DNA from: a virus
Length of the DNA: 40,894 bases
Virus record (IMG/VR): IMGVR_UViG_3300005531_000018
Location: 1 to 40,894 of that record
Reading direction: 5' to 3' (one strand)
Positions 16,563 to 30,790 of the stretch are shown in pieces. Numbering within the stretch: position 1 is the stretch's first letter; every line of letters begins with the position of its first letter. A program made the position numbers and the translations under genes. The notes under the pieces are model-generated. The model saw only the letters and a program-made list of their open reading frames with translations. It had not been told where the DNA came from and ran no database searches.

Positions 16563-16567
16563 AGACC

Positions 16568-18460
16568 ATGGCATTGACCCCTGTACAGCTACCGAACGCT
16601 CCAACCGCCTTGCCGGGGAGCCCGAACACATACGGCCCCGGATGCGGTCCATTCGTTAACGGCACCGATCTCTACGTCCTCACTCAACAGGCCGGGAATA
16701 TCACCAACGGGGCCGCGGCCTTCGCCATCTGTAAAAGTAGCGATGGAGGGGCGACGTGGACAGCGATGGATGCGGCCAACGAACCCAAGACGACGGGAGT
16801 GGTTCCGTATTGCGTCAATGGGGTCCAGATCGGGGCCAAGTTATACGTCATTTGGGGGCGATATTCGGTCGGCACCGGCACCCTCCACCTCGCCGCGACG
16901 ACCTTCAACATGGCGACCGGGACGTATGGGGCGACCGACACCGCCGGACCCGACACCCAGGTCGGAGCCTCCAATCCCATCGGGGCCTACACGGACGACA
17001 ACTGCAATGTCAACGCCGCGGCGAGGCCGGACGGAAAAATCTCGATTGCGTATTGCACCAACCCGGTCGCCACGCCGGTCGTCGAATACGTTGTCTGGGA
17101 TCCAGGCGGCGGCGGATGGACCGGTCACCAGACCCTCGCGACCGATTCGGGCGGGTTCGTCCAATGCTACGTCCCTTACGGCATCTACATCGATTCGACC
17201 GGACGCAAGTATGTCATCATGCTCTTTTTCAACACGGGGACGAGCGTGGGTCAGATCCAGTGCGTCACGCTCAACAACGCCGACGCCATCACGTCGACGA
17301 CCGTGGTGTCGTCCGACGTCTTCATCAACACTTTCCCCAACGGTCTCATCTCCGCCTTCTTAGGCGGCGGGTATCTCGACGCGACCAACTCCAGGATCGT
17401 GACGACGAGAATGTCGGCCTCGGGGGTCCTGGGGTTCTCCTCCGCCTCCTTCGCCGACAACCCGGTGTGGACGAGCGTCAACTCGACCATCTCCATCGTC
17501 GACAACTCGAACTTCCCGGTGAGTGCTCAAGGCTACGAGGCGACGTCGATCACCGAGTTCCAGTCGATGACCGTGTACCCGGCAGGAGGAACGACTCTAG
17601 GCTTCTTCACCTTCACCTTCAACCCGGCGTCCCCGATGGGGTCGTCGCTCTGGAACGTCATCCAGACCACTTACAACGGGACGAGTTGGTCGGCACCGGT
17701 CACCCAGGTCTCTAACGTGGGGGTTGGCCCGGGCGTCACAGTCGCGAACGGCGTCTCCGCTCTGGTATCCGGAACCACGACCTACATCATCTTCGGGATC
17801 TACGGTCCCAACATCTCCTACTCCTCCGCCTTCGCCTCCATCGCCGCCCCGGCCCCGACCGCCACCTCATCCAATGGTCCCGGCCGCGGAGCCGCCCGTT
17901 CCATCACCCTCAACGCCGCCGATCTTTGCTTGGCCCGCGACTTTCGCCTCCTCGATCTCATCGATCCCCAGGCCCTCTCATGCGGACGCCGCCCCGATTG
18001 CGTGGTCTTCCAGGACTTCTACGACGGCGATCAGGACGGACGCATCGATCACCTCCCGATCCCCCCAGGAGCCCGCCGGTTCTTCTACACCAACTCGATC
18101 CCGGTCCCGACCGTCGCCTCCGGCAACAACGCCGTCATCTCTTTCAACGCCCCAGTCGGTTACGACGGATTCATCCTCGGTCATTACCACCTCTACTCCG
18201 GACCCGGCACCTTCGTCGAGGGCTCCGGTGACCTCGTCTGGAGAATCCGCCTCAATCAAATCTACGCCCGCAACCTCGGCAACATCCAGGTCACCATGGG
18301 GTCCCCCCGCACCCTCATGGTCGTCGAGGGCGGGATCTGGATCGGCTCCGACCAATCCATCCAGTACCAAGTCGAGTTTTTCAACCTGACCGGGCTCATC
18401 ACCCCAGGCGTCGGCAATATCCTATGCGGTCTGTACGGCTACTTCTACCCGAGGACCTAA
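16568..18460 (+). CDS. Second Asp-box beta-propeller spike protein
   Basis: A 630-aa paralogue of the preceding protein, starting at ATG 16568, 5 nt after its stop. An Asp-box (SSDGGATW, residues 57-64) lies in a ~440-residue propeller-like region. Then comes the shared linker (NGPGRGAARSITLNAADLC) and C-terminal module (VGYDGFILGHYHLY, FVEGSGDLVWRIRLNQIYAR, NLGNIQVTMGS, LYGYFYPRT). Within the module an insertion (DCVVFQDFYDGDQDGRIDHL) replaces the region just upstream of the strands in the other two copies; its D-G-D-x-D-G-R pattern resembles a calcium loop. Two spikes with different heads could widen host range. Confidence 0.7.
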   Translation: MALTPVQLPNAPTALPGSPNTYGPGCGPFVNGTDLYVLTQQAGNITNGAAAFAICKSSDGGATWTAMDAANEPKTTGVVPYCVNGVQIGAKLYVIWGRYSVGTGTLHLAATTFNMATGTYGATDTAGPDTQVGASNPIGAYTDDNCNVNAAARPDGKISIAYCTNPVATPVVEYVVWDPGGGGWTGHQTLATDSGGFVQCYVPYGIYIDSTGRKYVIMLFFNTGTSVGQIQCVTLNNADAITSTTVVSSDVFINTFPNGLISAFLGGGYLDATNSRIVTTRMSASGVLGFSSASFADNPVWTSVNSTISIVDNSNFPVSAQGYEATSITEFQSMTVYPAGGTTLGFFTFTFNPASPMGSSLWNVIQTTYNGTSWSAPVTQVSNVGVGPGVTVANGVSALVSGTTTYIIFGIYGPNISYSSAFASIAAPAPTATSSNGPGRGAARSITLNAADLCLARDFRLLDLIDPQALSCGRRPDCVVFQDFYDGDQDGRIDHLPIPPGARRFFYTNSIPVPTVASGNNAVISFNAPVGYDGFILGHYHLYSGPGTFVEGSGDLVWRIRLNQIYARNLGNIQVTMGSPRTLMVVEGGIWIGSDQSIQYQVEFFNLTGLITPGVGNILCGLYGYFYPRT

Positions 18461-18477
18461 TCACTACCATCACCCCT

Positions 18478-18846
18478 ATGAACAAAATCATCCAATTCCT
18501 CACCTCACCCCAGTTCACGGTCATCCGTGTTCTCGCCTTGGTGTCGTGTTCGATGTGGCTCATGATGCTTTTTCTCTTGAACGTGGCGGCCTTGGCCCAG
18601 TCCATGACCTCCCCGCCCCGGCCCTCCCCGACCTTCAGCGATCTCGCCACCCAGGAGTACCGCCAGAACATCGAAAACGAACACCGCTTCTCCGTTCTCG
18701 AAACCGTCGTCAAGAATATCGACGAACGGACCTCCTTCATCCAGACCTGTATGTGGGCCTTGGTCGTCGGCATGTCCGGTCTGGTCGGCGAACGCGGTAT
18801 CAGCATCGTCAAGGAACGCAAGCACAAAGGAACCAACAACCTATGA
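18478..18846 (+). CDS. Two-membrane-segment small protein
   Basis: A 122-aa protein from ATG 18478. Membrane segments lie at about 13-37 (FTVIRVLALVSCSMWLMMLFL) and about 84-102 (FIQTCMWALVVGMSGLVG). Between them is a charged, coiled-coil-prone stretch (QEYRQNIENEHRFSVLETVV), and the C-terminus is basic (IVKERKHKGTNN). The layout would suit a phage lysis helper or an inner-membrane anchor. Its stop overlaps the next start (ATGA at 18843). Strongly C-rich, just before copy 3 of the skew-switch motif. Confidence 0.65.
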   Translation: MNKIIQFLTSPQFTVIRVLALVSCSMWLMMLFLLNVAALAQSMTSPPRPSPTFSDLATQEYRQNIENEHRFSVLETVVKNIDERTSFIQTCMWALVVGMSGLVGERGISIVKERKHKGTNNL

Positions 18847-19901
18847 TGAAAACCATCCTCTTTATCGCCATCTCCGTCCTCGCCGGTTTTGCGGGTGAAT
18901 CGACGGCATGGGGACAACAGAAACAGGCCCCGGACTGCCAGTTGGCGTTTATGTTTACGGCGTCGGGGCAGTTTACGCCGTCGCTGGCGAATTACGGGAG
19001 CGGGAGTAGTGGAGGGCCCAATCTGTGTGATAGCTGGACGTTGGGGTATGCGAGTGTCGGGTTTAGCGCGATCAGTTTGGTTGTCCAGAGTGCGCCCGCG
19101 GCGACGTCGAGCACGCCTGGGAGTTGGGTGAATTACGCGGGGACAGTGAGTACTGGGTCGAATCCGAACACGAGTACGAGCGGGGCTCAGACGAAGCTGA
19201 CGAACGGGGCGGTGGCGATTCCCTGGATCAGGGTGACGCTGGCGAGTGCGACCGGAAGCGGGACCGTGTTTGGGTTGCTGCAAGGGTGGAATACGGGGAA
19301 TTTTGGGGGCGGAGGGAGCGGTGGAGGGGGAGGAGGATGCGGGACCCCTTGTCAGGTGGTCGGGACCGCGGCGGCGGGGAGTCCTCCGAGTGGGGCTCCG
19401 GTACAGGTGGGCGGGAGCGATGGGACGAATATGCGGACCATCAAGACCGACACGAGCGGGGATCAGGTGGTGGTCGGGACCGCGGCGGCGGGGGCGGCGG
19501 CGACTGGGAATCCGGTGGCCGCGGGGGCGAAGGATACGAGCGGGAATGTGGAGAATGTTCAGAGCGATGTCGCGGGGAGGTTGTTGAATGGGGCGTATCC
19601 GTCGAGTGCGGCGGTTACGTTGAGTGCGAGTGGGTTGACCAGGATTGTGACGCATTCAGGGTCGAATACGACGACGGTGAGTCACTATAGCATCGCGTTC
19701 GCGAGTGCGGTGAACTTTCAGCTGGAGTATGGGACGGGAACGAATTGCGCGGCCGGGACGACGGCGTTGACGGGGGTGTATCAGTCGATTGCGGGGATTA
19801 CGATTGACGTGCCGTTTATCGTCCCGGCGGGTCAGGATCTATGCGTTAACTTGGGGTCGAGCGTGAACGGAGGGGGGACGATTTTTTATGTTCAACCCTA
19901 A
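18843..19901 (+). CDS. Exported adhesin-like protein with Gly-rich hinge
   Basis: A 352-aa protein. Residues 1-25 form a signal peptide (MMKTILFIAISVLAGFAGES, cleavage probably near STAWG-Q). A beta-rich N-terminal part follows, then a Gly-rich hinge (about 152-170) containing CGTPC, then repeats VVGTAAAGSPPSG and VVGTAAAGAAATG. The C-terminal domain (FQLEYGTGTNCAAGTTALTG, VPAGQDLCVNLGSS) resembles domains of environmental phage fibre-like proteins. The skew-switch motif encodes residues G-F-A-G-E-S of the signal peptide, and base composition changes at that point inside the gene. Likely cell-surface or virion fibre. Confidence 0.65.
   Translation: MMKTILFIAISVLAGFAGESTAWGQQKQAPDCQLAFMFTASGQFTPSLANYGSGSSGGPNLCDSWTLGYASVGFSAISLVVQSAPAATSSTPGSWVNYAGTVSTGSNPNTSTSGAQTKLTNGAVAIPWIRVTLASATGSGTVFGLLQGWNTGNFGGGGSGGGGGGCGTPCQVVGTAAAGSPPSGAPVQVGGSDGTNMRTIKTDTSGDQVVVGTAAAGAAATGNPVAAGAKDTSGNVENVQSDVAGRLLNGAYPSSAAVTLSASGLTRIVTHSGSNTTTVSHYSIAFASAVNFQLEYGTGTNCAAGTTALTGVYQSIAGITIDVPFIVPAGQDLCVNLGSSVNGGGTIFYVQP
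18887..18900 (+). repeat. Skew-switch motif, copy 3, inside a coding sequence
   Basis: Exact copy of TTTTGCGGGTGAAT, read in the signal peptide of the gene at 18843 as the end of G-F-A-G-E-S. Line 18601-18660 has 11 G and 31 C; 19561-19620 has 27 G and 10 C. As there is no gene boundary here, the composition switch cannot be explained by a new gene cassette. Confidence 0.85.
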
Positions 19902-21516
19902 GGCGAGATTGAGAGTGTCTCCGAAGGTCATGAGGGTAGTGATGTTTGTGGGTATCCTCGTGATGCTGGCGTGGTGCGGGCGGGATGGGGTGAGGTTGAT
20001 GGCCTCAGGGGTGTCGGCGAGGCCGGGGATTCCGGCTCCGGTGACGCTGGCGACCGCGTATGCGAATAACCGGAGGGATGGGTGGTATGCGAATGAGACC
20101 ACGTTGACCCCGGCGAACGTGGGCGGGGGGTCGTTCGGGAAGTTGTATACGTGGGCAGTTGCGGCGGGGAGGGTGAATGCTCAACCGCTGGTGATCCCGA
20201 GGGTGTCGACGTCGAGCGGGCAAAGGGATCTGTTGATTGTAACGTCGATGGCGGGGACCATGTACGCGTTCGATGTCAACAACAAAGTCCAGGCGTGGAA
20301 CTCTTCGTTGATCTCGACCGGGTATCAACCGAATAATCCGTTGCTTTATCTGGAGACGGTCGGGTGTGTGAGTACGCCGGTTGCCGATGTTGCGAATGCA
20401 GTGGTCTACGCGGTGTGTGGGGATAGTTCGCCGTCGTGGAAGCTGTTCAAGATCAGTTTGTTTAATGGGGCGATTCTGGCGAGTACGACGATTGTGGGAC
20501 AGGTGACCGGGACGGGGAACCCGCAAGGGGATGACGTGATCGGGGGGAAGTTGCAGTTTGTTCCGTCGCTGCATTTGCAGAGGGCGGCGTTGTTGATGGC
20601 GAACGGGAACATCTATATCGGGTTTGGGAGTCATGCGGATTCGGGGTCGTGGCATGGGTGGGCGTTCGCGTACAAGGCGAGTGATCTGAGTCAGGTCGCG
20701 GTGTTCTGTACGACTCCGTCGAATACGGGAGGAGGGTTGTGGGGGGCCGGTGGAGGGTTCTCGGCCGACGCCGCGGGGAATCTCTATGTACTGACGGGGA
20801 ATGGTGGGTGGGATGGGATCACGGCGTTCGGGGAAAGTATTTTGAAGCTGGACCAGAATTTGAATCTTTTGGACTGGTTCACTCCGGCGAACTACGCGAC
20901 TCTGATTACGAACGATTCGGACATGAGTTCGGGGCGGGCGATGTTGATGTCGACCTCGAATGGGTCGACACTCCTGGTCGGCGGGACGAAGGATTATAAC
21001 GTCTATGCGGTCGATACCGCGTGCATGGGGCATCTGCAAGGGACCGGGTCGTCGTGTACGGCTCCTCAGGTGTGGTTGACGAATAACGGGGCTCCGGGGC
21101 CGCATGTGGGGATTTATGGCGGGACGTTCGCCAACGGGGCGGTGTTCGTGCCGAATACCGGAGGGCCGATTTATAAGTACACGTTTTCGCCGGGGACGGG
21201 ACTGTTCAACAAAACCGCGGTCCAGTCGTCGGTGAATTATCAGTTTCCGGGGCCGCATCTCTCGTATTCCTCCAATGGGGCCAATGGCGGGGTGTTGTGG
21301 GCGATTACTTGCGCGATCAGCGCGGAGAGTACCGCGGAGCCAGGGACGTTGCGGGCGTTCGATCCGTCGACGATGTCGGAGATTTATAACTCGGGGGCGT
21401 TGATCGCCGACAACCTGGGGAATGTGAATAAATTCAATCCCGCGGTCGTCGCGGACGGGAAGGTGTACGTGTCGAGTGGATCGAACGTGTACCAGTTCGG
21501 ATTGGGAGCACACTAA
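19888..21516 (+). CDS. Membrane-anchored PQQ-type beta-propeller protein
   Basis: A 542-aa protein overlapping the upstream gene by 14 nt. A basic N-terminus and hydrophobic segment (about 15-32, VMRVVMFVGILVMLAWCG) would export or anchor it. The body resembles PQQ/quinoprotein-like propellers: NNRRDGWYANETTLTPANVG, LYTWAVAAGRVNAQPLVIPR, MAGTMYAFDVNNKVQAW, GGTKDYNVYAVDTAC, FNPAVVADGKVYVSSGSNVYQFG. Similar openings (NNxR-x-G-x-N-x-N-E-T-x-L-T-P-x-N-V) occur in secreted proteins of soil bacteria. Dehydrogenase catalytic residues are not evident, so a binding or scaffold role is likelier. It looks host-acquired. Confidence 0.75.
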   Translation: MFNPKARLRVSPKVMRVVMFVGILVMLAWCGRDGVRLMASGVSARPGIPAPVTLATAYANNRRDGWYANETTLTPANVGGGSFGKLYTWAVAAGRVNAQPLVIPRVSTSSGQRDLLIVTSMAGTMYAFDVNNKVQAWNSSLISTGYQPNNPLLYLETVGCVSTPVADVANAVVYAVCGDSSPSWKLFKISLFNGAILASTTIVGQVTGTGNPQGDDVIGGKLQFVPSLHLQRAALLMANGNIYIGFGSHADSGSWHGWAFAYKASDLSQVAVFCTTPSNTGGGLWGAGGGFSADAAGNLYVLTGNGGWDGITAFGESILKLDQNLNLLDWFTPANYATLITNDSDMSSGRAMLMSTSNGSTLLVGGTKDYNVYAVDTACMGHLQGTGSSCTAPQVWLTNNGAPGPHVGIYGGTFANGAVFVPNTGGPIYKYTFSPGTGLFNKTAVQSSVNYQFPGPHLSYSSNGANGGVLWAITCAISAESTAEPGTLRAFDPSTMSEIYNSGALIADNLGNVNKFNPAVVADGKVYVSSGSNVYQFGLGAH

Positions 21517-22721
21517 TGGAAAAAATGAAGAAGATGGCGAGGGCGACGTCGAGGTCACCGTTCGCTCCGTTCCTGGTGATCGTCGCCGCGGTCATGACGA
21601 TTGAGGCATTGATGGTGCTGTTGCCGAAAACCGCCATCGGGAGTTCGTTGACGGTCGGGGCGTACACGACGGTCCAGAATGCCGGGAGTTCGGTGACCCA
21701 GAGATCGGTGTTGAACTTTGTGAGCGGGTGTACGCCGGTCGACAATGCCGGTACCAAGGCGACCGATGTGACGTGTTCGGGCGGGGGCGGGGCGACGATT
21801 GGCGGGGTGAATGCCCAGACGGTCGGATATACGCCGGTCAGTGGGGACTCGGGGAAGCTGGTGACGATGAACGGGAGCAATCTGACCCTGACGTTACCCA
21901 GTCCTCCGCCGTCGAATACGTGGTTGATCTGGGTCGAGAATCTGAACGCGACGAACGTGACGATCTCAAGGAACGGGTTGACGATTAACGGCGGGACTGC
22001 CAACATCACGCTCCCTCAGTATGAGATGGTGAACGTCTGGACCAATGGGACGAATTATTTTGCGTCGTTGCCGTTCGTGGCCGGGACCAACATGACGATC
22101 ACCCCGGCGTCGAACGGGATCACGTTCGCGGCGAGTGGCGGAGGTGGGGGTGGGAATGTTATTCCTTTGCCGACGATTACTCCGGTGATCGACGCCAACT
22201 TTGCCTGGGCCAATCAACAAACGGCGAGTTACACGAACACGAATAACACGATCTATTTGACGGTGCCTACTCTTGGCGGGGACAATCTCTGCGCGAGGGA
22301 GACGAGCGTCCCAGGCGCGGCCCCATATACGTCCACTTTCATGTTCGCCCCGACCGTGTCGAACAACTCCAACATGGGAGTCGGGGTTGAGTTGAGAGAT
22401 TCGGTGAGCGGCACCATGGTCGCGATGCAATTTGACGGGAGTCTCAACTCGACCCGGTGTATCTCTGGGTCACTGACCGGGTGGAGCGGAGCCGGAGGGA
22501 ATCAGTATCGCTATGGGTCTTACACCTTTGGGCAAATCAACAATACAGGGACGAATGTGAACTTTTTGGCGTCGAATGACGGGGTTAGTTTCTCGGTCGT
22601 CTGTACAGTAGCGATTGGAATTTGGCCCAACACCCCGAATAAGGTGGGCTTCTATGTTCAGAGTGAGGGAGCCCCGTCGAATGCGTCGATGGCCGTTTAC
22701 AGCTACACCCACACACCTTAG
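21516..22721 (+). CDS. Anchored fibre-like / lectin-like protein
   Basis: A 401-aa protein coupled to the upstream gene (TAATG). An N-terminal membrane segment lies at about 19-38 (FLVIVAAVMTIEALMVLLP). Residues about 55-90 (VQNAGSSVTQRSVLNFVSGC, then VDNAGTKATDVTCSGGGG) match a short segment common in phage tail-fibre and spike proteins. A Gly-rich hinge near 210 leads to a C-terminal beta-domain (about 215-401) of concanavalin-like appearance (VGVELRDSVSGTMVAMQF, NKVGFYVQSEG). I infer a surface-exposed binding protein. Membrane anchoring is unusual for a fibre of a tailed phage. Confidence 0.6.
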   Translation: MEKMKKMARATSRSPFAPFLVIVAAVMTIEALMVLLPKTAIGSSLTVGAYTTVQNAGSSVTQRSVLNFVSGCTPVDNAGTKATDVTCSGGGGATIGGVNAQTVGYTPVSGDSGKLVTMNGSNLTLTLPSPPPSNTWLIWVENLNATNVTISRNGLTINGGTANITLPQYEMVNVWTNGTNYFASLPFVAGTNMTITPASNGITFAASGGGGGGNVIPLPTITPVIDANFAWANQQTASYTNTNNTIYLTVPTLGGDNLCARETSVPGAAPYTSTFMFAPTVSNNSNMGVGVELRDSVSGTMVAMQFDGSLNSTRCISGSLTGWSGAGGNQYRYGSYTFGQINNTGTNVNFLASNDGVSFSVVCTVAIGIWPNTPNKVGFYVQSEGAPSNASMAVYSYTHTP

Positions 22722-22733
22722 AATGGAATTGCG

Positions 22734-23363
22734 ATGACCCCATTCAGAACTCCCGACACCTGGAGAACCCGGTACGCCAAGCGGGCGTCGATGGGGACCA
22801 TGGATCAGGTCCTCGCGACGATTGCGAACGTCGAGAAGTCCAAAAACGGTCTCAACAACCCCGGCAACGTCATCTACGTCGGACAGACCGGAGCCTCGCC
22901 GTCGTCCAATTGCTTCACCGACACCGCAACCGGCAAACAGGACTGTATCGCCCAGTTCGACACCATCGACAACGGGGTGGCCGCGGAGACCTCGATCATC
23001 AACTCCGCGGCGGCCCAAGGGCTCACCATCGCCCAGTTCACCGCCAAGTACGCTCCGTCCGGATCGGGCAACGACCCGGCCGCATACGCCCAGTACATCG
23101 CCCAAGCAACCGGGTTGAGCGTCGACGCCCCGTTGAGCGCCGCCATCGCCGCGGCGTCCAACCCAGGGATCACAACCGGCCCGAATCCACCGGCTTCCAA
23201 TGGCGGCACCGTGTACTATACGCCGGACTCATCGGCGGTGTGCGATCCAGGTGTCGACCCGACGTGCGGGGTGGCCATCGAGGCGTCGACGTCTCCGGAC
23301 TGGACGACGATTGGGATTCTGGCGGCCCTCGCGGCGGTGCTGTTGATCGCTACCGGGCGATAG
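22734..23363 (+). CDS. Membrane-anchored transglycosylase-like lysin
   Basis: A 209-aa protein. Residues about 23-130 resemble small phage lysozyme/transglycosylase-like domains: a candidate catalytic Glu34 in IANVEKSKNGLNNPGNVIYV with the NNPGN motif at 41-45, then AQFDTIDNGVAAETSIIN, then LTIAQFTAKYAPSGSGNDPA and IAQATGLSVDAPLSAA. The C-terminus is a membrane segment (WTTIGILAALAAVLLIATGR) with the basic end typical of the C-tail-anchored proteins at 361-5041. A virion-membrane lysin that opens peptidoglycan at entry fits; release at lysis is possible. It overlaps a convergent minus-strand gene by 14 nt. Confidence 0.7.
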   Translation: MTPFRTPDTWRTRYAKRASMGTMDQVLATIANVEKSKNGLNNPGNVIYVGQTGASPSSNCFTDTATGKQDCIAQFDTIDNGVAAETSIINSAAAQGLTIAQFTAKYAPSGSGNDPAAYAQYIAQATGLSVDAPLSAAIAAASNPGITTGPNPPASNGGTVYYTPDSSAVCDPGVDPTCGVAIEASTSPDWTTIGILAALAAVLLIATGR

Positions 23364-23574
23364 CCTCGTCTTCTTCGATCCTTCGCGCGAGGCGGGCCGC
23401 GATCTCGGTCATGACAATCGTCATGGCCCAGACCCCCAACATCGTTTGACGGGCGAGTTCCTTCTCGGACAGGTGCATCGAGACATCGGACACCTTCTCG
23501 CAGTCTTTGAGGGTGTTGTTGCGGTACTCGATCCACTCCTCCGCGGTGAAGAGGCCGGGGCGAGGGCCGATCAT
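23350..23574 (-). CDS. Small helical hypothetical protein
   Basis: A 74-aa protein. The ATG at 23574 has AGGGAGG a few nt upstream on the minus strand and overlaps the stop of the upstream minus-strand gene (ATGA). The sequence is helical and charged: LFTAEEWIEYRNNTLKDCEK, VSMHLSEKELARQTMLGVWA, MTIVMTEIAARLARRIEEDE. It contains one hydrophobic stretch but no certain membrane segment. Function unknown. Confidence 0.55.
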   Translation of the reverse strand: MIGPRPGLFTAEEWIEYRNNTLKDCEKVSDVSMHLSEKELARQTMLGVWAMTIVMTEIAARLARRIEEDEAIAR

Positions 23575-23925
23575 CCCCGCCTCCCTTTGGCCGCATTCGC
23601 CGCCGCCGCCGCCTTTTTCACCGCCCAATACGCTCGAATCCTCTTCGCCTGGGCCTTCTTCTGGGCGGCCGTCCAACCTCGCCGACGCCGCCGACCAAAT
23701 CCGATCCGGCCGATTTTGCCGGGTTGGAAAGGGTGGCGTAGACGGCGTGGCGGTGGTTCCGGCGGCCTCTGGCGGGTTGAGGAGGGTCTTTGGACGCCCG
23801 CGCCGCGGGGCTCCCTCAGCCACGAGAAGGGCCTCTAAAACGGCGACCGTGTGGACTTCCCGCTCGGTGTCGCGCCGGAGTTGGGCGATGAAGGAGCGGA
23901 GTTGGGTGATGGTGGTGCTTGTCAT
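23571..23925 (-). pseudogene. AT-hook-like small protein with an apparent +1 frameshift
   Basis: Two halves of one likely protein lie in different frames. The 5' half from ATG 23925 reads as a helical start (TQLRSFIAQLRRDTEREVHT) plus a GRP-type basic motif (APRRGRPK). The 3' half, offset by one nt, reads GRRRRRGWTAAQKKAQAKRI then RAYWAVKKAA and ends at TGA 23571-23573, overlapping the next ATG. Bacterial and phage proteins with an N-terminal helix, RGRP motif and a W-x-x-AQKKA-x-A-x-RI-x-A-x-WA tail are familiar to me, so a one-base slip between about 23700 and 23740 is likely. It could be real, a sequencing error or programmed. Confidence 0.45.
23712..23729 (+). repeat. Possible degenerate skew-switch motif
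   Basis: ATTTTGCCGGGTTGGAA resembles the 14-mer with small insertions. The + strand is C-rich before it and moderately G-rich after it, like the exact copies, but the G-rich tract lasts only to about 24550. It coincides with the apparent frameshift in the minus-strand gene. This may be coincidence. Confidence 0.3.
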
Positions 23926-24003
23926 AGAGGGGATCTTGACCGATTCCACGGCCGCGGAGAATAGAGCGCCAGTACCAGGACGGCCGAAACCACGGTTCTA
24001 GGG

Positions 24004-24098
24004 GTGTCGCATTCTATAGTAAAAGGCGTACAGGGCTTCGGAAGAGGGTGAAAAAGTGGCTTAGTTTGCAACGCCGGACAAAAAAGGTATTGCGACAC
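24004..24098. promoter_or_regulatory. Divergent intergenic region with 8-bp inverted repeat
   Basis: GTGTCGCA (24004-24011) and TGCGACAC (24091-24098) are exact reverse complements 79 nt apart, between a minus-strand gene and the + strand gene at 24173. TTGGAC at 24099 is a weak -35-like match. The arms may be two half-sites of an operator, or a recombinase-related site given the integrase gene 470 nt downstream. The 23950-24172 interval shows no gene. Confidence 0.4.
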
Positions 24099-24172
24099 TT
24101 GGACGTGGTGTGGTAACGTTTACGACAATGATCCGGATCTTTACAGGGCCGGGTCACGAGAAGGGCGAACGA

Positions 24173-24559
24173 ATGGAAAACCAGACTAATACCGATTCAC
24201 CGGCCGAATCGTGCGCGACGTGCCGGTTCTACGTCCCCAACATGTGGGCGTCTCCGGACATACCCACGGCCCCAAGCGGAACCAGCATAGCCGAATCGAT
24301 TAAGTGGGTTTTGGGCCATTGCCGCCGCCGGTCGCCGACCAACGAGTTCAAATCGACCGCTTTCCCGTTGATGCCGCCGGACCAATGGTGTGGGGAGTAC
24401 ATCGCCATCGCCGCGACGGTCGAGCGGGTCACGATGATCGACTTGATGGCGAGGTCGGTGAGGGCGGCGGAGACCGCGGCCGTAGCGTGCGAGAAGACCG
24501 CGGAGGCGATGGAGAAGATCGCGACGTGTGTGGTGACCGGGACCTTCAGGACGTCATAG
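24173..24559 (+). CDS. Cys-rich putative zinc-binding protein
   Basis: A 128-aa protein from ATG 24173, preceded by GAGAAGGGCGAAC. The N-terminal half carries the pattern C-x2-C-R-F-Y (CATCRFYVP), then GHCRRRSP and a terminal DQWCGEY, a zinc-ribbon-like arrangement recurring in phage and bacterial proteins. The C-terminal half is a helix rich in Ala/Glu (MARSVRAAETAAVACEKTAE). The role is unknown. It directly precedes the recombinase with a 3-nt gap, so a helper or regulator of recombination is conceivable. Confidence 0.65.
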   Translation: MENQTNTDSPAESCATCRFYVPNMWASPDIPTAPSGTSIAESIKWVLGHCRRRSPTNEFKSTAFPLMPPDQWCGEYIAIAATVERVTMIDLMARSVRAAETAAVACEKTAEAMEKIATCVVTGTFRTS

Positions 24560-24562
24560 TCG

Positions 24563-25072
24563 ATGCCTTACCAGCACAAACGGGAACCCCTCACCTCGGA
24601 CCAGATCACCACCCTCACCTCTGCGTGCCGCACCCCGGAGGAGAAGTTGGTGATCTGGACCCTCCTGGACACCGGGCTCCGGATCTCCGAGTTCACCGCC
24701 ATCAACCGCGAAAACCTGGACTTCCAAACTCACCGCCTGACCGTCATGGGGAAGGGCCGCAAACGCCGCATCGTCCCTCTCACTCCCCGGCTCCGTGAAC
24801 TCCTCGAAGCCTACGTCCTCGCACACGACGCGATCTCGATGGAGGTGAGGAAGGCCCAGAGGATCGTTAAGCGGGTCGCGACCAGGGCCAAGATCCGGAA
24901 GCCGGTCACGCCCCACGTCCTCCGCCACACGTTCGCGGTCCAAGCGGTCCAGAAGGGGGTCTCGTTGCCGACGCTCATGCAGATGCTTGGCCACTCGAAC
25001 CTCCAGACCACCCAAATCTATCTCAACCTCGCCCCCGAGGATGCGATTAAGGAGTTCTCGTCGAAATGGTAG
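24563..25072 (+). CDS. Minimal tyrosine recombinase (catalytic domain only)
   Basis: A 169-aa tyrosine recombinase with all catalytic positions visible: Arg40 (DTGLRISE), Lys64 (VMGKGRKRRIVPL), His118-x-x-Arg121 (HVLRHTF), His144 (LGHSNLQTT) and Tyr153 (QIYLNL). Typical integrases are 300-400 aa; this one lacks the N-terminal arm- and core-binding domains and begins about 10 residues before the catalytic fold. The ending NLAPEDAIKEFSSKW is reminiscent of XerA-like and archaeal-virus enzymes. It may integrate the element, resolve multimers or invert DNA. No attachment site was recognised. Its stop overlaps the next start. Confidence 0.85.
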   Translation: MPYQHKREPLTSDQITTLTSACRTPEEKLVIWTLLDTGLRISEFTAINRENLDFQTHRLTVMGKGRKRRIVPLTPRLRELLEAYVLAHDAISMEVRKAQRIVKRVATRAKIRKPVTPHVLRHTFAVQAVQKGVSLPTLMQMLGHSNLQTTQIYLNLAPEDAIKEFSSKW

Positions 25073-25323
25073 ACCAGATTCTCTCGTTTCACTGGATGGT
25101 GTTCTTCTGGGGACTCTTCCTGGGCATCCTCACCGGCATCCGGCTCCGTAAGCGTCACGACGTCTACACCCGCCGCCTCACCGAGATCGCCCTCACCGCC
25201 CGTCATTACCGCCATGCCGACGCCAATCATTGCACCTACTTCGAGATCCAGAAGTGCCGCGAGGACCTCTTCGATCTCATCGACTGTTACGATCAAGACG
25301 TCAAAAAAGGAACCCTAAAATGA
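25066..25323 (+). CDS. Small single-span membrane protein
   Basis: An 85-aa protein overlapping the recombinase by 7 nt. A membrane segment at about 9-25 (HWMVFFWGLFLGILTGI) is followed by a basic turn (RLRKRHD), so the tail should be cytoplasmic. The tail is helical with His/Cys residues (HADANHCTYFEIQKCREDLF). Its stop overlaps the next start (ATGA at 25320). No family recognised. Confidence 0.6.
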   Translation: MVDQILSFHWMVFFWGLFLGILTGIRLRKRHDVYTRRLTEIALTARHYRHADANHCTYFEIQKCREDLFDLIDCYDQDVKKGTLK

Positions 25324-25889
25324 CCATCACCATCAACCGCCTAGCCATCTTCGCGGTCGCCGCCTTCATGATCTCCGTGATGACGCCGTCCGCGAACGCC
25401 CAGTCCACCTCCACCTCCGACGACGGCGACAAAATCATCTCAGTCCCCAAACGCTACGTCTCCCCGGAAGGTGTCGCCCACCAAGCCCCCGCCGCCTCCG
25501 CCCAGTGGATCGGCATCGGCCGCGAGATCGGCACCGCCATCAACGAAGGTCTCGGGGCCGTCGTCGACAAGGCCGAAAAATTCGGCACCACCAAGGTCGG
25601 TACCTTCGTCATGTTCATGGTCGCCTGGAAAATCATCGGCCGCGACGTCTTAGGCGTCGTCCTCGGGGTCCCCTTCCTCATCGCCGGGTGGGGCGTCATC
25701 CTCTACCTCTGCCGCCGCATGTTCTTCGGCTACCGCGTTATCGACCGCGTCGAGGGCCGCACCAAGTTCTACAAGGACGCCCCGGCGATGAAGTTCAACA
25801 GTGGCGACATGAAGGGTCTCACCGGAGCCGCTCTCATCATCTCCGCTGTTGCCTTCACCCTCGTCATGATTCTGGAGGTGATATTCTAA
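25320..25889 (+). CDS. Secreted/membrane protein with signal peptide
   Basis: A 189-aa protein. A signal peptide with an ANA-Q cleavage site is clear (LAIFAVAAFMISVMTPSANA). After an acidic/Ser-rich stretch comes an amphipathic region (IGREIGTAINEGLGAVVDKA), then two adjoining membrane segments (VGTFVMFMVAWKIIG and VVLGVPFLIAGWGVILYL) and a last one at the C-terminus (GLTGAALIISAVAFTLVMIL). Similar architecture (EGLGAVVDKAEKF followed by hydrophobic spans) seems familiar from phage genomes. A lysis or envelope role is possible but not shown. Confidence 0.6.
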   Translation: MTITINRLAIFAVAAFMISVMTPSANAQSTSTSDDGDKIISVPKRYVSPEGVAHQAPAASAQWIGIGREIGTAINEGLGAVVDKAEKFGTTKVGTFVMFMVAWKIIGRDVLGVVLGVPFLIAGWGVILYLCRRMFFGYRVIDRVEGRTKFYKDAPAMKFNSGDMKGLTGAALIISAVAFTLVMILEVIF

Positions 25890-26179
25890 TGACCAAAACC
25901 GAACTCGACAAACTCCACGACGATCTAGCCTACGCCGATCTCAAGGTGATTGTCTTACGCTTCGGTCTATCCGAGGCTTTCAAGACTGGACCAACGAATC
26001 AAAAGGCCGCTGCCGTCATGAAGCGTTTTATTGAAAACGAACTAGACCCGGCTGTTGCGGAGTCCTCTCGATTAAATGAATTACACGACGAGCACTGTGA
26101 CGGACCTAGTCGTCGTCGTTTCGTTCACCGCCGTTCCAGAATAAACCCGCCATCAGAGAAAAAGGAACCCACTCAATGA
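25889..26179 (+). CDS. Small basic hypothetical protein
   Basis: A 96-aa protein coupled to the upstream gene (TAATG). The N-terminal two thirds are helical (MTKTELDKLHDDLAYADLKV, AAAVMKRFIENELDPA), and the C-terminus is basic (SRRRFVHRRSRINPPSEKK) with an INP motif. No recognisable domain. The stop overlaps the next start (ATGA). Confidence 0.55.
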   Translation: MTKTELDKLHDDLAYADLKVIVLRFGLSEAFKTGPTNQKAAAVMKRFIENELDPAVAESSRLNELHDEHCDGPSRRRFVHRRSRINPPSEKKEPTQ

Positions 26180-26448
26180 ACCGCCGTTCTATCCGCGACC
26201 ATCGCCGCATCCCTCGCCGTTTCCGTTTCACCACCAAAGAAGGCGTCGGCACCACCACATGGCCCCTCTCGATTAAGAACGGGGAGCCATCCTTTAACCC
26301 CTCCGTCCGGATCGCCTACGTCATCGACCCTTCCGGCCGCCACATCGTCCCCAAAGGAGGTCCACCTCTCCTAATGTCCAACCCCAAACCTAGCGAAGCC
26401 ATCGAAGATTACGCTAAGCGTCTCGTCGGTCGTCAAGAGTCCCCGTAG
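26176..26448 (+). CDS. Small basic hypothetical protein
   Basis: A 90-aa protein. It has a strongly basic N-terminus (MNRRSIRDHRRIPRRFRFTT) then a small beta-rich part (VRIAYVIDPSGRHIVPKGGP) and a short helix (EAIEDYAKRLVGRQ). It includes FNPS and SNPK motifs like other NP-containing proteins here. It ends a run of overlapping genes from 24173. The 26449-26563 gap is AT-richer and probably carries a promoter for the next gene, though no clear -35/-10 pair is seen. Confidence 0.5.
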   Translation: MNRRSIRDHRRIPRRFRFTTKEGVGTTTWPLSIKNGEPSFNPSVRIAYVIDPSGRHIVPKGGPPLLMSNPKPSEAIEDYAKRLVGRQESP

Positions 26449-26563
26449 AGGGACAAACACGCGATGCTTACGTCAGTAGGCACTACACCGACACAAAAAC
26501 CTTAGTCCTCACCATCATCTGTTTTTTAGACGAACTCAACCAGGACGGAAAAATATAAATAAA

Positions 26564-26902
26564 ATGCCCAGTTTCTCTCTCACCCCGGCCCAACTCGCCT
26601 CTCTCCGCCTTCTACCCGGCCGCGCCCTCATCAAGGTCGCCCCCATCCGTCTCACCACCGACTCCGGCCTCCACCTCCCCCAGGCCGCCGCGGAGGCCCA
26701 CGAACACGCCCAGATCCTCCGCGAAGGCACCGTCACCCTCATCAACCCAGAACCGCACACCAACCCCGGCATCGCCGTCCATTACCTCAATCCGGCCGGT
26801 CTCCTCAACAAACGTGTCCTCTACTTCACCCACCTCGACGAGGTCGATAACGAATATGTCATTGTGCTCCACGGTCAGATCGTAGCCGTGGTCGGGGACT
26901 GA
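26564..26902 (+). CDS. GroES-like co-chaperonin
   Basis: A 112-aa protein with the plan of Cpn10/GroES, the lid of the GroEL folding chamber: LLPGRALIKVAPIRLTTDSG at the N-terminus (family pattern P-x-x-x-R-x-L-x-K), LHLPQ, an ILREGTVTLI strand matching the usual GxV-x-x-V-G region, and a C-terminal end (EYVIVLHGQIVAVV) matching the usual I-x-G-x-I-L-A-V-V. Length is close to the normal 95-100 aa. Mobile-loop identity is weak, so binding to host GroEL is inference. Phage T4 gp31 is a known precedent for a phage co-chaperonin used in capsid folding. Confidence 0.65.
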   Translation: MPSFSLTPAQLASLRLLPGRALIKVAPIRLTTDSGLHLPQAAAEAHEHAQILREGTVTLINPEPHTNPGIAVHYLNPAGLLNKRVLYFTHLDEVDNEYVIVLHGQIVAVVGD

Positions 26903-26912
26903 ATCGTCCCCG
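26893..26912. terminator. Bidirectional hairpin between convergent genes
   Basis: CGGGGAC and GTCCCCG form a 7-bp stem with a 6-nt loop containing the TGA of the GroES-like gene. The convergent minus-strand gene ends at 26916. No T-tract is present on the + side. It is placed as expected for a shared terminator. Confidence 0.45.
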
Positions 26913-26915
26913 CTA

Positions 26916-27284
26916 TTAGGAAGGAAAAATTCTCGGGAAGAGGTGGCGCATCGCCGTCCCCCCTTCCCTCCTGTACATCCACCCGATCACGTCCGTCTTC
27001 TGATCCACCGTCAACCCGTTCCACGTAACCGGCGGTATCGCCACATAATCCCACCTCTGCCCGCCGGTCTTCGTGTAAAACGTCCCATGATCCAACACCC
27101 TGACCGTCATCCCCACCGGATCATCCCCCACCAACTTCGCCGTATACAGGGTGATTCCGCCCACTTGAAACGAATCCCCCTTCACGTAATCGACGCCCTC
27201 AACCAATCCCCCCTCCTTAGCCACTCCCGTCGTCATCGCGGTCGGGTTGTTGTTGCGGTCAGTCCTTGCAGTTGAGGGCGTCAT
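26916..27284 (-). CDS. Phage-type conserved protein of unknown function
   Basis: A 122-aa protein with GGAGA 11 nt before the ATG on the minus strand. The sequence (RNNNPTAMTTGVAKEGGLVE, GVDYVKGDSF, YTAKLVGDDPVGMTVRVLD, QRWDYVAIPPVTWNGL, DVIGWMYRREGGTAMRHLFP) resembles a compact conserved family I recall from phages and bacteria. The RNNNP opening is reminiscent of lysozyme-like NNPGN segments but no catalytic Glu is evident. It is last in a four-gene minus-strand operon. Function unknown. Confidence 0.6.
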   Translation of the reverse strand: MTPSTARTDRNNNPTAMTTGVAKEGGLVEGVDYVKGDSFQVGGITLYTAKLVGDDPVGMTVRVLDHGTFYTKTGGQRWDYVAIPPVTWNGLTVDQKTDVIGWMYRREGGTAMRHLFPRIFPS

Positions 27285-27323
27285 ATCGATTACGTTCTCC
27301 TTCCCCGTCTTCCCTGTCTTCTC

Positions 27324-28103
27324 TTACAGCGAGTTCAAATCCTGAGTCAGGGTCTCAAAATCAAACCCGCTCGGAGCCAACCTGGTCTTCTCGATCCAGT
27401 CGCGGCTCAGGACCGCGTACCCTTCATCGCAATACCTGACGAGGAAATTCCAACTCATCCTCACCAGCATCCCCCAGGTCACGACCGTCACCGTATCCTC
27501 GTCATACCCGACCGCGGGAACGCAATGCCCACCCCAACTCCCCACCGCCGACGCCGCCGGATCGCTATCATCCACATGCCACCCGGTCCCCGGCACCGCA
27601 TTCGACTGGCTCTGTGCCGTCTCCGGCAACGCCAGTCCGAGGTAGCAATTCCCGAACATCGAGACGCTCAACTTCACGTCCTCAATCAACGCCTCTTCCG
27701 TCCCCTGCCTGACCGCGGCGAACGCCACGATCCGATGCCCCGCGATCCCTTGCTTCCTCCACGTATTCAGCGCCGTCAACATATCGCACCCGTTGTCGGT
27801 CGCCTCATCCCCCGGCACATACCCGCCGATCACCTCATACGCCTTCAAAATCTCGTCATCGGTCGGCACCACCGGGTTCCCCACATACGTCGTCCATTGC
27901 TCGATCATATGCCCCGCCGCGGCACACACGCAGTCCCCAAGCGTGTCATTCATCATCATCGGCCACTCCGGCACATGACTCTGAAAGAACGCCTGTCCAG
28001 GTGCGGGCGGAAGGGCCGCCGTATACCTCGACAACTTAAACGTCCTCTTATCGAACCTCGGGGCCTTCTTCCCCAACCTCACTTCCATCATCATCCCTGC
28101 CAT
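27324..28103 (-). CDS. Papain-like (C1-type) cysteine peptidase-like protein
   Basis: A 259-aa protein with the layout of phage papain-like peptidases: the nucleophile region MNDTLGDCVCAAAGHMIEQW with candidate Cys58, a DNGCDMLTALNTWRKQGI segment, a histidine region GSWGGHCVPAVGYD with candidate His193, and a VVTWG stretch that may supply the third polar position. No signal peptide is seen, so it probably acts in the cytoplasm or in the virion. Possible roles are virion protein maturation (perhaps at the NP motifs, a speculation) or host-protein cleavage. It is separated from the gene upstream by only 1 nt. Confidence 0.7.
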   Translation of the reverse strand: MAGMMMEVRLGKKAPRFDKRTFKLSRYTAALPPAPGQAFFQSHVPEWPMMMNDTLGDCVCAAAGHMIEQWTTYVGNPVVPTDDEILKAYEVIGGYVPGDEATDNGCDMLTALNTWRKQGIAGHRIVAFAAVRQGTEEALIEDVKLSVSMFGNCYLGLALPETAQSQSNAVPGTGWHVDDSDPAASAVGSWGGHCVPAVGYDEDTVTVVTWGMLVRMSWNFLVRYCDEGYAVLSRDWIEKTRLAPSGFDFETLTQDLNSL

Positions 28104-28104
28104 C

Positions 28105-28539
28105 TTACTCCACCCCCGTCAAAATCTTCGAGATCGTCATCGCCCAATCCGCGGCAGTCGGCGGCGGCAAATACCTGTACGCCACCTGCCCCACCCTCAA
28201 CCACAAATCCCCCTCCGCTTCCGGCGGATAATACGCCGCTTGCCTCTCGATCACCTTCAACTCCGCGACCATCACCGTCAGATTCGTCGCATACTCCGGC
28301 GGCATCGGATTCGGCACCGCGGCCAAAACCGCCTCGATCACCGTCGCAATGTTCCTCATCTCTTCTTTTTCCTTTCCGTTGAATTTTGCGGGTGAATCAC
28401 CCGCGGTTAAGAATAGTTTCGATGCCGGGTAGGGATTGTTACAGCCTTGATCGACACCATGGACTTCACCGGCCTGGACGTTGGCCCCACAACCGCAAAC
28501 CCAGGGTTGATAGAGAGTGTAGGAGAGGGCTTGGATCAT
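28105..28539 (-). CDS. Hypothetical protein containing the skew-switch motif
   Basis: A 144-aa reading from ATG 28539, which overlaps the upstream stop (ATGA), supporting this start. The first 47 residues have a small Cys-bearing unit (PWVCGCGANVQAGEVHGVDQ, then GCNNPYPASKLFL). Residues 48-53 (D-S-P-A-K-F) are the reverse strand of the motif at 28384. The rest (VIEAVLAAVPNPMPPEYATN, MVAELKVIERQAAYYPPEAE) is helical. An internal ATG at 28359 has GGAAAGGA upstream, so the helical part could be a separate 84-aa gene. Unknown family. Confidence 0.5.
   Translation of the reverse strand: MIQALSYTLYQPWVCGCGANVQAGEVHGVDQGCNNPYPASKLFLTAGDSPAKFNGKEKEEMRNIATVIEAVLAAVPNPMPPEYATNLTVMVAELKVIERQAAYYPPEAEGDLWLRVGQVAYRYLPPPTAADWAMTISKILTGVE
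28384..28397 (+). repeat. Skew-switch motif, copy 4, inside a minus-strand gene
   Basis: Exact copy on the + strand, although the genes here run on the minus strand. Line 28201-28260 has 9 G and 26 C; 28621-28680 has 21 G and 8 C. Uniquely, it extends into a palindrome: GCGGGTG (28388-28394), AAT, CACCCGC (28398-28404). Confidence 0.85.
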
Positions 28540-29636
28540 CGGGCCGGTCCTCCGTTGATGGAGTAGAGGTTGGGGTCGTCCTCGTTCCGGCTAATCATGT
28601 AACGGCGGATGTCGTCGCGGAGAGCGGGTTTGTTACCGGTTAAGTGGTAGATTCCCTGGTAGTTAGCGATGAGGTCGTAAGTGGGGGAGTATTGGTTTCG
28701 TACCAGGATCAGGTCACGGGACGAATACGCCCGCCGATTCTTGCTCCCGTGGAAGAAGTGGGTGGCGAAGCCGTCGACGTAGCCGATGTTCTTTTTGAGG
28801 CGGGCGGCGTTCTGTTGCCACGCGTGGATGTATTGGCGATAATCGGCGCTATAGCCGTCGATGTGCATGTCTGGGGCTTCTTCGCCGACCAAGCCGAAGG
28901 TCATGAACCAATCGCCGTGACCCAGGATACACTTATCAAGGAGCCCGCCACATGTCTCGTATCCTTCGCGGGTGAAGGCCCAGGCCCCGCCGGTTGCACC
29001 GACGCCGGGAAGTCCGCCGACTCCCATGGCCATCGCGTAATGATAGTCGTCATCGACTGGGATGTCACGACGCCGCCAACCGCCATTTTCGTACCCATCC
29101 GGAAGCCGGAATCCGTTCTGGATGTAGTTGAAGGCAAACCCGTTGTTGGTACCGATGACGCGGTGTCCGGTAGAGTAGGTTTCGCCGGAAAGGTCGGCGT
29201 ATTGGGAGAACATCTGGACCCAGGCGTAATGTTGAAGCTGGTGGATGGTTTCGAGGGCGACGTCGTGACGGGTGAAATGAAAGTCCATGTCGATGGCCGC
29301 CCCGTGTTTCCAACCTGGAGGGAAGCGTTCGATGACGAGGCGTTGGACGTGTTCTTTGAGGAAGAGTTCGGAGTCGCCGCGGAATTGGAAGTCCCGAGGG
29401 TTGACGGTGGGGTCGGTTACCTCGAATGGCCGGTCCCCAAACGCCATCTCTCCGACGTAGAGCCGGACGTTCGGCATCTTCTCCATGTGACGGCGGAAGT
29501 CGTTGGCGAGTTCGCGCCGGGTACGCCATCGCCACGGGTTGGTGTAGCAACAAGCGACGTGGAGGATCTCGGACTCGCTCCATTCGGCAAAAGGTTGATG
29601 TACGTCTGGGTGTTGACGGTGGTGTTCTACAGGCAC
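28536..29636 (-). CDS. Glycosyltransferase-like protein
   Basis: A 366-aa protein. I start it at GTG 29636, preceded by GAAAGGGCGAAC, the leader also seen before 7462 and, in similar form, 24173; the open frame extends further but only as a shadow of the lipoprotein gene. Features: ILHVACCYTNPWRWRTRREL, VRLYVGEMAFGDRPFEVTDP, a KE-containing segment (SELFLKEHVQRLVIERFPPG), DMDFHFTRHDVALETIHQLQ in place of the DxD-bearing strand, VVQMFS-like AWVQMFSQYADL, and GGAWAFTREGYETCGGL, LGHGDWFM toward the acceptor side. This matches a glycosyltransferase-like family known in phages. It heads the minus-strand operon. Confidence 0.65.
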   Translation of the reverse strand: MPVEHHRQHPDVHQPFAEWSESEILHVACCYTNPWRWRTRRELANDFRRHMEKMPNVRLYVGEMAFGDRPFEVTDPTVNPRDFQFRGDSELFLKEHVQRLVIERFPPGWKHGAAIDMDFHFTRHDVALETIHQLQHYAWVQMFSQYADLSGETYSTGHRVIGTNNGFAFNYIQNGFRLPDGYENGGWRRRDIPVDDDYHYAMAMGVGGLPGVGATGGAWAFTREGYETCGGLLDKCILGHGDWFMTFGLVGEEAPDMHIDGYSADYRQYIHAWQQNAARLKKNIGYVDGFATHFFHGSKNRRAYSSRDLILVRNQYSPTYDLIANYQGIYHLTGNKPALRDDIRRYMISRNEDDPNLYSINGGPAR

Positions 29637-29790
29637 TTCGTTCGCCCTTTCTCTGACTTGGTGAGGGTTGCTGACGGTCACGCCGTCCGGTCGATCAATC
29701 CTACTATGGGCGGGATCGCGGGGGCAAATAAATTTGAGTTCCAGATCCGGCCCCTGTAATCTGACGGAGGGAACAAAGGAACCCATTTTC

Positions 29791-30288: not shown

Positions 30289-30293
30289 AAATC

Positions 30294-30323
30294 GGGGCGG
30301 CCCCCCGGAAAGAAGACCGCCCC
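30294..30323 (+). terminator. GC-rich hairpin after the lipoprotein gene
   Basis: GGGGCGG (30294-30300) pairs with CCGCCCC (30317-30323) across a 16-nt loop, starting 6 nt after the stop. There is no T-tract, but position and stability suit a transcript end between the lipoprotein gene and the convergent repressor gene. Confidence 0.5.
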
Positions 30324-30379
30324 ATGCTTCCATCTGGCAACTTCCAACACGTTCACGGACACCGAAAAATCAAACAGGA

Positions 30380-30595: not shown

Positions 30596-30602
30596 AAAAT
30601 TC

Positions 30603-30673: not shown

Positions 30674-30726
30674 TCTGAGGGTGATTATCGTGATTCCGCT
30701 CCCCGAAGTCAAATAAATCTCAATTC

Positions 30727-30739: not shown

Positions 30740-30790
30740 CGAATAGATCGAGACCCCTATATTTTGTTTCCAGAATTTCTCGGATTTTTG

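What the first reader, a model, noticed from the sequence alone, without database searches (positions are those of the whole stretch)
18887..28404. The motif works through coding sequence and in both gene orientations
Copy 3 lies inside the signal-peptide codons of a + strand gene (G-F-A-G-E-S) and copy 4 inside a minus-strand reading frame (D-S-P-A-K-F), yet the + strand skew flips in the same direction at both. Wobble codons change accordingly: Leu is mostly CTC before and TTG after. This excludes codon adaptation of imported gene cassettes and transcription direction as simple causes, and argues for strand-asymmetric mutation tied to replication or to another DNA-level process.
Basis: partly seen in the sequence, partly recalled or inferred. 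Interest (0 to 1): 0.75.

Follow-up and report, generated by a model that had tools for sequence, protein, structure and literature searches.

The report
Dispersed sites flip viral strand composition
A virus genome carries five copies of a 13-letter DNA site, and at every copy the balance of G versus C between the two DNA strands switches abruptly, as if a DNA-copying or similar machine sets out in both directions from each copy; three relatives do the same with different site sequences, which looks like a new kind of viral genome organisation.

Summary
All five copies of TTTTGCGGGTGAA(T) sit at the window's five largest upward GC-skew steps, within 8 bp. Fourfold-site composition swaps from C 0.67/G 0.19 to C 0.13/G 0.71 across the site with A and T unchanged, and follows the genomic strand (gene-strand coefficient about 0). 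The window is part of an uncultured, probably tailless jelly-roll virus; I found 26 relatives. Three (G002, G004, G007) carry their own, different 13-15-bp repeated site (two are clear dyads) with the same steps, partly at the same genomic places, e.g. within 15 bp upstream of the same gene in all four. Orthologous genes change skew as local sites predict (r = 0.73). Other relatives lack repeated sites and comparably strong sawtooths. Best reading: origin-like points from which a strand-polarised process, most likely bidirectional replication, departs, forming kilobase-scale 'N-domains'; the site binder is unknown (a ParB/KorB-like protein is a candidate). Mycobacteriophage stoperators and T5 nick sites, the nearest known dispersed sites tested, show no skew step. 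Copy 4 probably lies 24 nt upstream of the true start codon, not in coding sequence.

The parts
5427..5440 (+). site copy 1 (TTTTGCGGGTGAAT), 9 bp upstream (site centre) of the start of the 658-aa gene 5442-7418; GC-skew step +0.28
   Evidence: the same place is occupied by different sites in G002, G004 and G007
12181..12194 (+). site copy 2 (TTTTGCGGGTGAAA), 31 bp upstream (site centre) of gene 12218-12643; step +0.27
18887..18900 (+). site copy 3, inside the signal-peptide codons of gene 18843-19901; step +0.38
   Evidence: a different site at the homologous codons in G002 and G004
28384..28397 (+). site copy 4, in minus ORF 28105-28539, probably 24 nt upstream of the true start codon at about 28359; step +0.30
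34943..34956 (+). site copy 5, intergenic, 47 bp upstream (site centre) of the small gene 34996-35202; step +0.39
   Evidence: G002 has a site next to the homologue of gene 33977-34864
5433..12187 (.). N-shaped skew domain 1 (6754 bp), skew falls from +0.21 to -0.10
12187..18893 (.). N-shaped skew domain 2 (6706 bp), +0.18 to -0.15
18893..28390 (.). N-shaped skew domain 3 (9497 bp), +0.22 to -0.20; contains both + and - genes
28390..34949 (.). N-shaped skew domain 4 (6559 bp), +0.07 to -0.23
18843..19901 (+). secreted/structural-type protein with signal peptide that holds copy 3 (cluster 22)
28105..28539 (-). ORF that holds copy 4; homologues in G015 and G019 begin at residue 61, so the true start is probably near 28359
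28536..30041 (-). minus gene to the right of copy 4; its + strand third-position skew is +0.43 (coding strand -0.43)
11283..11918 (+). conserved small jelly-roll-like (probable capsid) protein used to find the relatives
32273..33970 (+). helicase (PHROG 2488, Helicase_C_2), replication/recombination module
36353..37162 (+). Sak4-like/AAA_24 RecA-type ATPase, recombination module
38467..39279 (+). protein whose G002 homologue (60% identity) is an ERCC4-domain nuclease; recombination module

Best explanation
The 13-bp repeats are dispersed, lineage-specific recognition sites (dyad-like in G004 and G007) in the genomes of a group of uncultured, probably tailless viruses. From each site a strand-polarised DNA process moves outward in both directions, most likely bidirectional DNA replication, so the genome is tiled with short replication domains (3.7-11.5 kb between active sites in most cases). 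Over evolutionary time the outward strand (lagging-strand template and leading nascent strand) loses C and gains G. This gives an upward skew jump at every site and a decline to the opposite sign before the next site, the pattern called an N-domain in human DNA. A trans-acting protein reads the sites: sites keep some genomic positions while their sequence is replaced in all copies together. A ParB/KorB-like protein is the best available candidate reader. Shown: sites, jumps, independence from genes and from site orientation, turnover of the sites in relatives. Inferred: that the process is replication, that it starts at the sites, and that a ParB-like protein reads them.
For: Jump centred on the site: best offset 0, +4, -11 and +22 bp in G000, G002, G004 and G007; mean step above every rotation of the site set in each. 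The motif is rediscovered from skew-jump windows alone in G004 (log-likelihood 51.7 vs control maximum 30.1) and G007 (41.7 vs 33.3). Same sign for both motif orientations and for sites inside genes or between them. Gene strand has no effect; local sites predict skew differences between orthologues. N-shaped decline between sites, as expected for a fork-polarity gradient (PMC3320577). The sign (outward strand G-rich) is that of bacterial leading strands (general knowledge). Dyad sites TTTACG-N-CGTAAA in G004 and TTTTA-TGAT-TAAAA in G007. The relatives encode family A DNA polymerase, a UDG-domain protein, helicase, Sak4 and ERCC4 nuclease. A ParB-like protein is encoded by all three site-bearing genomes that cover that region, each with a site 22-60 bp upstream of its gene or operon. 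G004's site resembles the KorB operator TTTAGCGGCTAAA (PMC11790492).
Against: No replication data exist. No conserved AT-rich unwinding element or other flanking element accompanies the sites. The base exchange is nearly pure G-C with A at or above T, unlike deamination-driven replication skews; a deamination-only model fits worse and predicts T above A. Some exact or near-exact sites show no step (G002 58513, G004 48504, G007 42303 and 59855). ParB-like genes also occur in relatives without detectable sites. No primase or initiator protein was recognised. Five or more origins in about 60 kb would be unusual for a virus.
Confidence: 0.48

Rival explanations
1. The sites are cut or nicked by a viral enzyme. 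Strand displacement or recombination-dependent replication then runs outward from the break, exposing the same strands as an origin would.
For: Dyad target sites; a recombination-rich gene set (Sak4, ERCC4, helicase, HNH/endonuclease VII-type genes in G002). Break-induced forks leaving both ends give the observed sign. T5-like phages have a helicase of the same family and single-strand interruptions.
Against: T5 nick sites show no skew step (0.036, -0.023, -0.033). 5'-to-3' resection from a break would give the opposite sign. No candidate nuclease is specific to the site-bearing genomes.
Confidence: 0.2
2. The sites are operators or promoters, and transcription (R-loops, transcription-coupled mutation) makes the skew.
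For: 24 of 34 sites lie within -100 to +80 bp of a gene start and 19 of 34 are intergenic, against 24-29% and 9-14% of the sequence. Outward transcripts would be G-rich, and the sign fits exposure of the non-template strand.
Against: Gene strand has no effect. Sites deep inside genes give the same steps, and site orientation relative to genes is mixed. The divergent + genes starting at 30.8 kb, which have no site, begin with negative skew (-0.40). Stoperators, the nearest analogous operators, show no step.
Confidence: 0.12
3. Selection, not mutation, shapes the strands (for example avoidance of C-rich Rho-type signals or purine loading of outward strands), with the sites as landmarks.
For: The exchange is nearly pure G-C and the outward strand is purine-rich in non-coding DNA of G000 too (A 0.265, G 0.33, C 0.218, T 0.187). 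Even synonymous C-to-A and C-to-T choices (Arg, Leu) avoid C.
Against: The effect spans kilobases and all synonymous site types in step with distance to the site; no over-represented oriented oligomer was found.
Confidence: 0.12
4. Assembly chimera or mosaic of segments that share a terminal 14-mer.
For: Each copy marks an abrupt change of composition.
Against: A gene runs across copy 3 and is homologous across it in G002 and G004. Gene order is shared with a complete circular relative. Three independently assembled genomes show the same with other sites.
Confidence: 0.02

Closest known systems
Human replication N-domains (compositional skew bounded by master origins; PMC3320577)
   Same: Upward skew jump at borders and gradual decline to the opposite sign between them, read there as a fork-polarity gradient.
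   Different: A few kb instead of megabases; defined by a short exact DNA site; in a small virus; nearly pure G-C exchange.
Cluster A mycobacteriophage stoperators (PMC3029335)
   Same: 13-bp sites, 24-34 copies (24 in L5, 34 in Bxb1), mostly intergenic, consensus changes in concert between lineages.
   Different: Stoperators in Noelle and D29 show no skew step; they have one orientation relative to transcription, these sites are mixed.
KorB operators / ParB parS sites (plasmid RK2; PMC11790492)
   Same: A short palindrome recognised by a ParB-family protein; TTTAGCGGCTAAA versus G004 TTTACGGCGTAAA; the relatives encode a ParB-like protein.
   Different: No strand-composition effect is known to me; binding not shown here; sites in G000 and G002 are poor dyads.
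Site-specific nicks of phage T5
   Same: Dispersed, sequence-specific sites in phage DNA; T5-like phages share a helicase family with this virus.
   Different: T5 nick sites show no skew step; T5 is a large tailed phage.
Salisaeta icosahedral phage 1 and other single-jelly-roll tailless viruses (virus type, not the sites)
   Same: Circular genome of 44 kb, no recognised tail genes; the capsid-like protein's best, weak fold matches are jelly-roll capsids such as SPV1 and SH1.
   Different: Fold matches are weak (best PDB E 1e-3); SSIP-1 has no sawtooth.

Membership tests
Bidirectional replication origins | GC skew switches from negative to positive at the site | tested here: met
Bidirectional replication origins | Skew independent of gene strand, polarity reverses between neighbouring origins | tested here: met
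Bidirectional replication origins | AT-rich unwinding region or conserved extra elements beside the site | tested here: not met
   only a small local AT rise, no other conserved columns; not a universal feature of viral origins, so not treated as defining
Bidirectional replication origins | DNA synthesis starts there | not testable with these tools
   needs infected cells or reads
Stoperators | Many copies of one 13-bp site, consensus changes in concert between relatives | tested here: met
Stoperators | One orientation relative to transcription | tested here: not met
   mixed in G002, G004 and G007
Stoperators | Known stoperators share the skew-step property | tested here: not met
   Noelle 0.018, D29 -0.004 mean step
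KorB/ParB operator array | ParB-family protein encoded in the genome | tested here: met
   G002, G004, G007; the window lacks that region
KorB/ParB operator array | Palindromic site bound by that protein | tested here: inconclusive
   dyads in G004 and G007, weak in G000 and G002; binding not testable
KorB/ParB operator array | Presence of protein and sites goes together | tested here: inconclusive
   ParB-like genes also in relatives without detected sites
T5-type nick sites | Site-specific single-strand interruptions in DNA | not testable with these tools
   sequence only
T5-type nick sites | Skew step at known nick sites | tested here: not met

The most novel reading that the evidence does not exclude
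A virus lineage has its genome tiled with 5-13 origin-like sites read by one virus-encoded dyad-binding protein, possibly of the ParB/KorB family. An outward-moving process from each site, with a C-to-G type strand bias not described before, writes the sawtooth. The recognition sequence is replaced at all sites together while some positions are kept.
Probability: 0.3. Interest if true: 0.9.

Novelty: new variant of a known kind. Interest (0 to 1): 0.8.

Why it matters
If the sites are origins, the sequence alone gives near-single-base maps of 5-13 start sites in one small genome, with three natural re-designs of the recognition site at shared positions. That would be a compact model for how multi-origin replication shapes genome composition, so far discussed mainly for human N-domains. 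If they are not origins, a DNA-level process with strong G-C strand exchange remains to be found. In either case the exact site list makes the question directly testable.

Tried and rejected
Motif in other viruses: 14- and 15-mer scans of IMG/VR gave only single, apparently chance copies; of these, the 119 copies from the 14-mer scan, tested for skew, show none. Close relatives by single-protein scans (helicase, 14832-16562) found none; megablast against phages found none. Relatives came from the peptide FVVPQNP repeated in window proteins, then capsid-protein profiles.

Motif search in relatives without repeats (G003, G012, G017, G022): nothing clearly above control windows. G029 has a 13-mer five times with a mean step of only 0.043. 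Stoperators and T5 nicks as explanations: no step. Oriented oligomers (Chi/KOPS-like) near the sites: none stands out.

Substitution models: C-to-G alone, or C-to-T plus A-to-G, fit best; the data cannot choose. A gene present only in site-bearing genomes: only ThyX in three of four, not a credible site reader.
Full report
WHAT WAS CHECKED. The window is a 40,894-bp uncultured virus record. The 13-mer TTTTGCGGGTGAA occurs five times, all on the + strand, at 5427, 12181, 18887, 28384 and 34943. I computed the change of (G-C)/length between the 1000 bp left and right of every position. The five largest upward steps are at 34939, 18885, 28378, 5433 and 12189 (0.39 to 0.27), each within 8 bp of a copy; the sixth is 0.15. 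The mean step at the five copies is 0.325, above all rotations of the site set around the sequence (maximum 0.229), and is maximal at offset 0. The same 14-mer elsewhere in IMG/VR has no step (119 copies, mean 0.003, sd 0.04), so the letters alone do nothing in unrelated genomes.

STRAND, NOT GENE. Third-position skew within 500 nt flips from between -0.3 and -0.7 on the left to between +0.3 and +0.6 on the right of all five copies, in + genes (copies 1, 2, 3, 5) and - genes (copy 4) alike. At fourfold sites of + genes the composition is A 0.05 C 0.67 G 0.19 T 0.09 left and A 0.06 C 0.13 G 0.71 T 0.10 right; - genes follow the genomic strand. Codons obey C avoidance on the outward strand wherever a synonym allows: Leu CTC to TTG, Arg CGC to AGG, Ser TCC to AGC/AGT, C-ending twofold codons 0.88 to 0.52. 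One correction: homologues of the minus ORF with copy 4 begin at what is residue 61 here, so copy 4 is probably 24 nt upstream of the true start.

THE VIRUS AND ITS RELATIVES. PHROG, Pfam, phage tblastn and megablast searches found no tailed-phage terminase, portal or capsid among the window proteins scanned, but a D10-like helicase, a Sak4-like ATPase, an ERCC4 protein, ThyX, MazG and a tyrosine recombinase. A peptide repeated in window proteins (FVVPQNP) led to four relatives. A profile of a conserved 211-aa protein led to 26 relatives in all. Many have direct terminal repeats of 97-127 bp, as circular complete assemblies do, at 41-62 kb. The 211-aa protein models as a beta-rich fold whose weak best matches are single-jelly-roll capsids (SPV1; SH1 lower in the list), so a tailless icosahedral virus is likely.

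SITES IN RELATIVES. I searched each genome for k-mers repeated at dispersed places, chosen by copy number without regard to skew, and then asked whether they sit on skew steps. Four genomes score far above the rest: G000 (TTTTGCGGGTGAA x5), G002 (TTCGGCAGGAGAA x11 exact), G004 (TTTACGGCGTAAAC x8) and G007 (ATGATTAAAAC x10 allowing one mismatch; full form TTTTATGATTAAAAC). In each the mean step exceeds every rotation of the site set, with offsets 0, 4, -11 and 22 bp. In reverse, a motif finder given only the windows around skew steps recovers the G004 and G007 sites (log-likelihood 51.7 against a control maximum of 30.1, and 41.7 against 33.3) and nothing convincing in G003, G012, G017 and G022. 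Sites occur in both orientations in G002, G004 and G007 with the same upward step, and sites inside genes give steps as large as intergenic ones.

SAME PLACES, DIFFERENT LETTERS. Upstream of the homologue of gene 5442-7418 all four genomes have their own site 8-15 bp before the gene. In the signal peptide of the homologues of gene 18843-19901, G000, G002 and G004 have their own site. G002 and G007 both have one about 320 bp into the ERCC4 gene. Thus the positions are partly kept while the sequence is replaced at all copies. This is expected for sites read by a co-evolving protein and parallels, in that respect only, the stoperators of cluster A mycobacteriophages (PMC3029335).

CAUSE OF THE SKEW IS LOCAL TO SITES. 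In all four genomes fourfold genomic skew depends on position between sites (coefficient 0.22-0.65) and not on gene strand (0.00-0.03). Across 118 orthologous pairs the difference in skew follows the difference in predicted site position (r = 0.73, p = 6e-21); of 31 pairs with opposite prediction, 28 differ in the predicted direction. Pairs share genomes and are not fully independent, so the p-value is optimistic. Between sites the skew declines from positive to negative, nearly linearly on average in G000.

MECHANISM. The jump sign is unchanged by reverse complement, so the relevant fact is that the strand running 5' to 3' away from the site is G-rich and C-poor on both sides. That is the leading-strand sense of forks leaving the site in both directions, and the gradual reversal between neighbours is the fork-polarity gradient described for human N-domains (PMC3320577). 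I therefore favour bidirectional replication start sites. Break- or nick-initiated replication gives the same sign and cannot be separated here. Transcription is less likely because gene strand and site orientation do not matter. The exchange is nearly pure G for C, with A at or above T on the outward strand. Cytosine deamination alone fits poorly; C-to-G, or C-to-T with A-to-G, fit well. The relatives carry a uracil-DNA-glycosylase domain protein near a family A polymerase. Removal of uracil followed by C insertion opposite the gap would give C-to-G, but this is speculation.

WHO READS THE SITES. G002, G004 and G007 encode a ParB-like protein, and in each a site lies 22-60 bp upstream of that gene or of the short gene set that contains it. 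The G004 site resembles the KorB operator core TTTAGCGGCTAAA (oligonucleotide in PMC11790492). But other relatives have ParB-like genes without detectable sites, and the window lacks that region. This remains a candidate only.

CONTROLS AND LIMITS. Stoperators of phages Noelle and D29 and three annotated T5 nick sites show no step; SSIP-1 has no sawtooth. A few sites have no step (G002 58513, G004 48504, G007 42303 and 59855). In the helicase tree the site-bearing genomes fall in one group with G012 and G017, in which no site was found. Gene calls are my own simple model. No reads, no infected host and no close strain pairs of the site-bearing genomes were available, so mutation cannot be separated from selection.

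Noticed in passing
4634, 4718, 11028 (+): The peptide FVVPQNP[IF] with similar flanks (GDLxxGxFVVPQNP) recurs in different proteins of the presumed structural operon and in relatives; possibly a processing or assembly signal.
   Followed up: partly
1-5400: A run of Gly/Ala/Thr/Pro-rich proteins, several with a single C-terminal membrane segment, no database match; probably virion membrane proteins.
   Followed up: no
window as a whole: Relatives with terminal repeats are mostly 46-62 kb (one 41 kb) and the window lacks the polymerase, UDG and ParB-like genes of G002, so it is probably a fragment of a genome of about 60 kb.
   Followed up: partly
L158:8723-10171 (-) and L158:4332-5780 (-): In relatives a uracil-DNA glycosylase domain is joined to a polymerase-type (PHROG 17) region and the family A polymerase domain is a separate gene: a split polymerase with a UDG head.
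   Followed up: partly
L157:14026-15819 (+) and homologues: A 500-690 aa protein conserved in most relatives with no database match, often the only gene on its strand in that region, divergent from its neighbour.
   Followed up: no
L262-L264 (G029): 25210, 32093, 39215, 42168, 49546: 13-mer GGCGCTCTTCTCG occurs five times in both orientations with a small mean skew step (0.043); function unknown.
   Followed up: no
L187, L188, L189: Relatives of the 211-aa capsid-like protein lie in contigs binned as Methylophilaceae and Acidobacteria, the only hints at hosts.
   Followed up: no
39942-40655 (+): ThyX is shared by G000, G004 and G007 only, three of the four site-bearing genomes.
   Followed up: no
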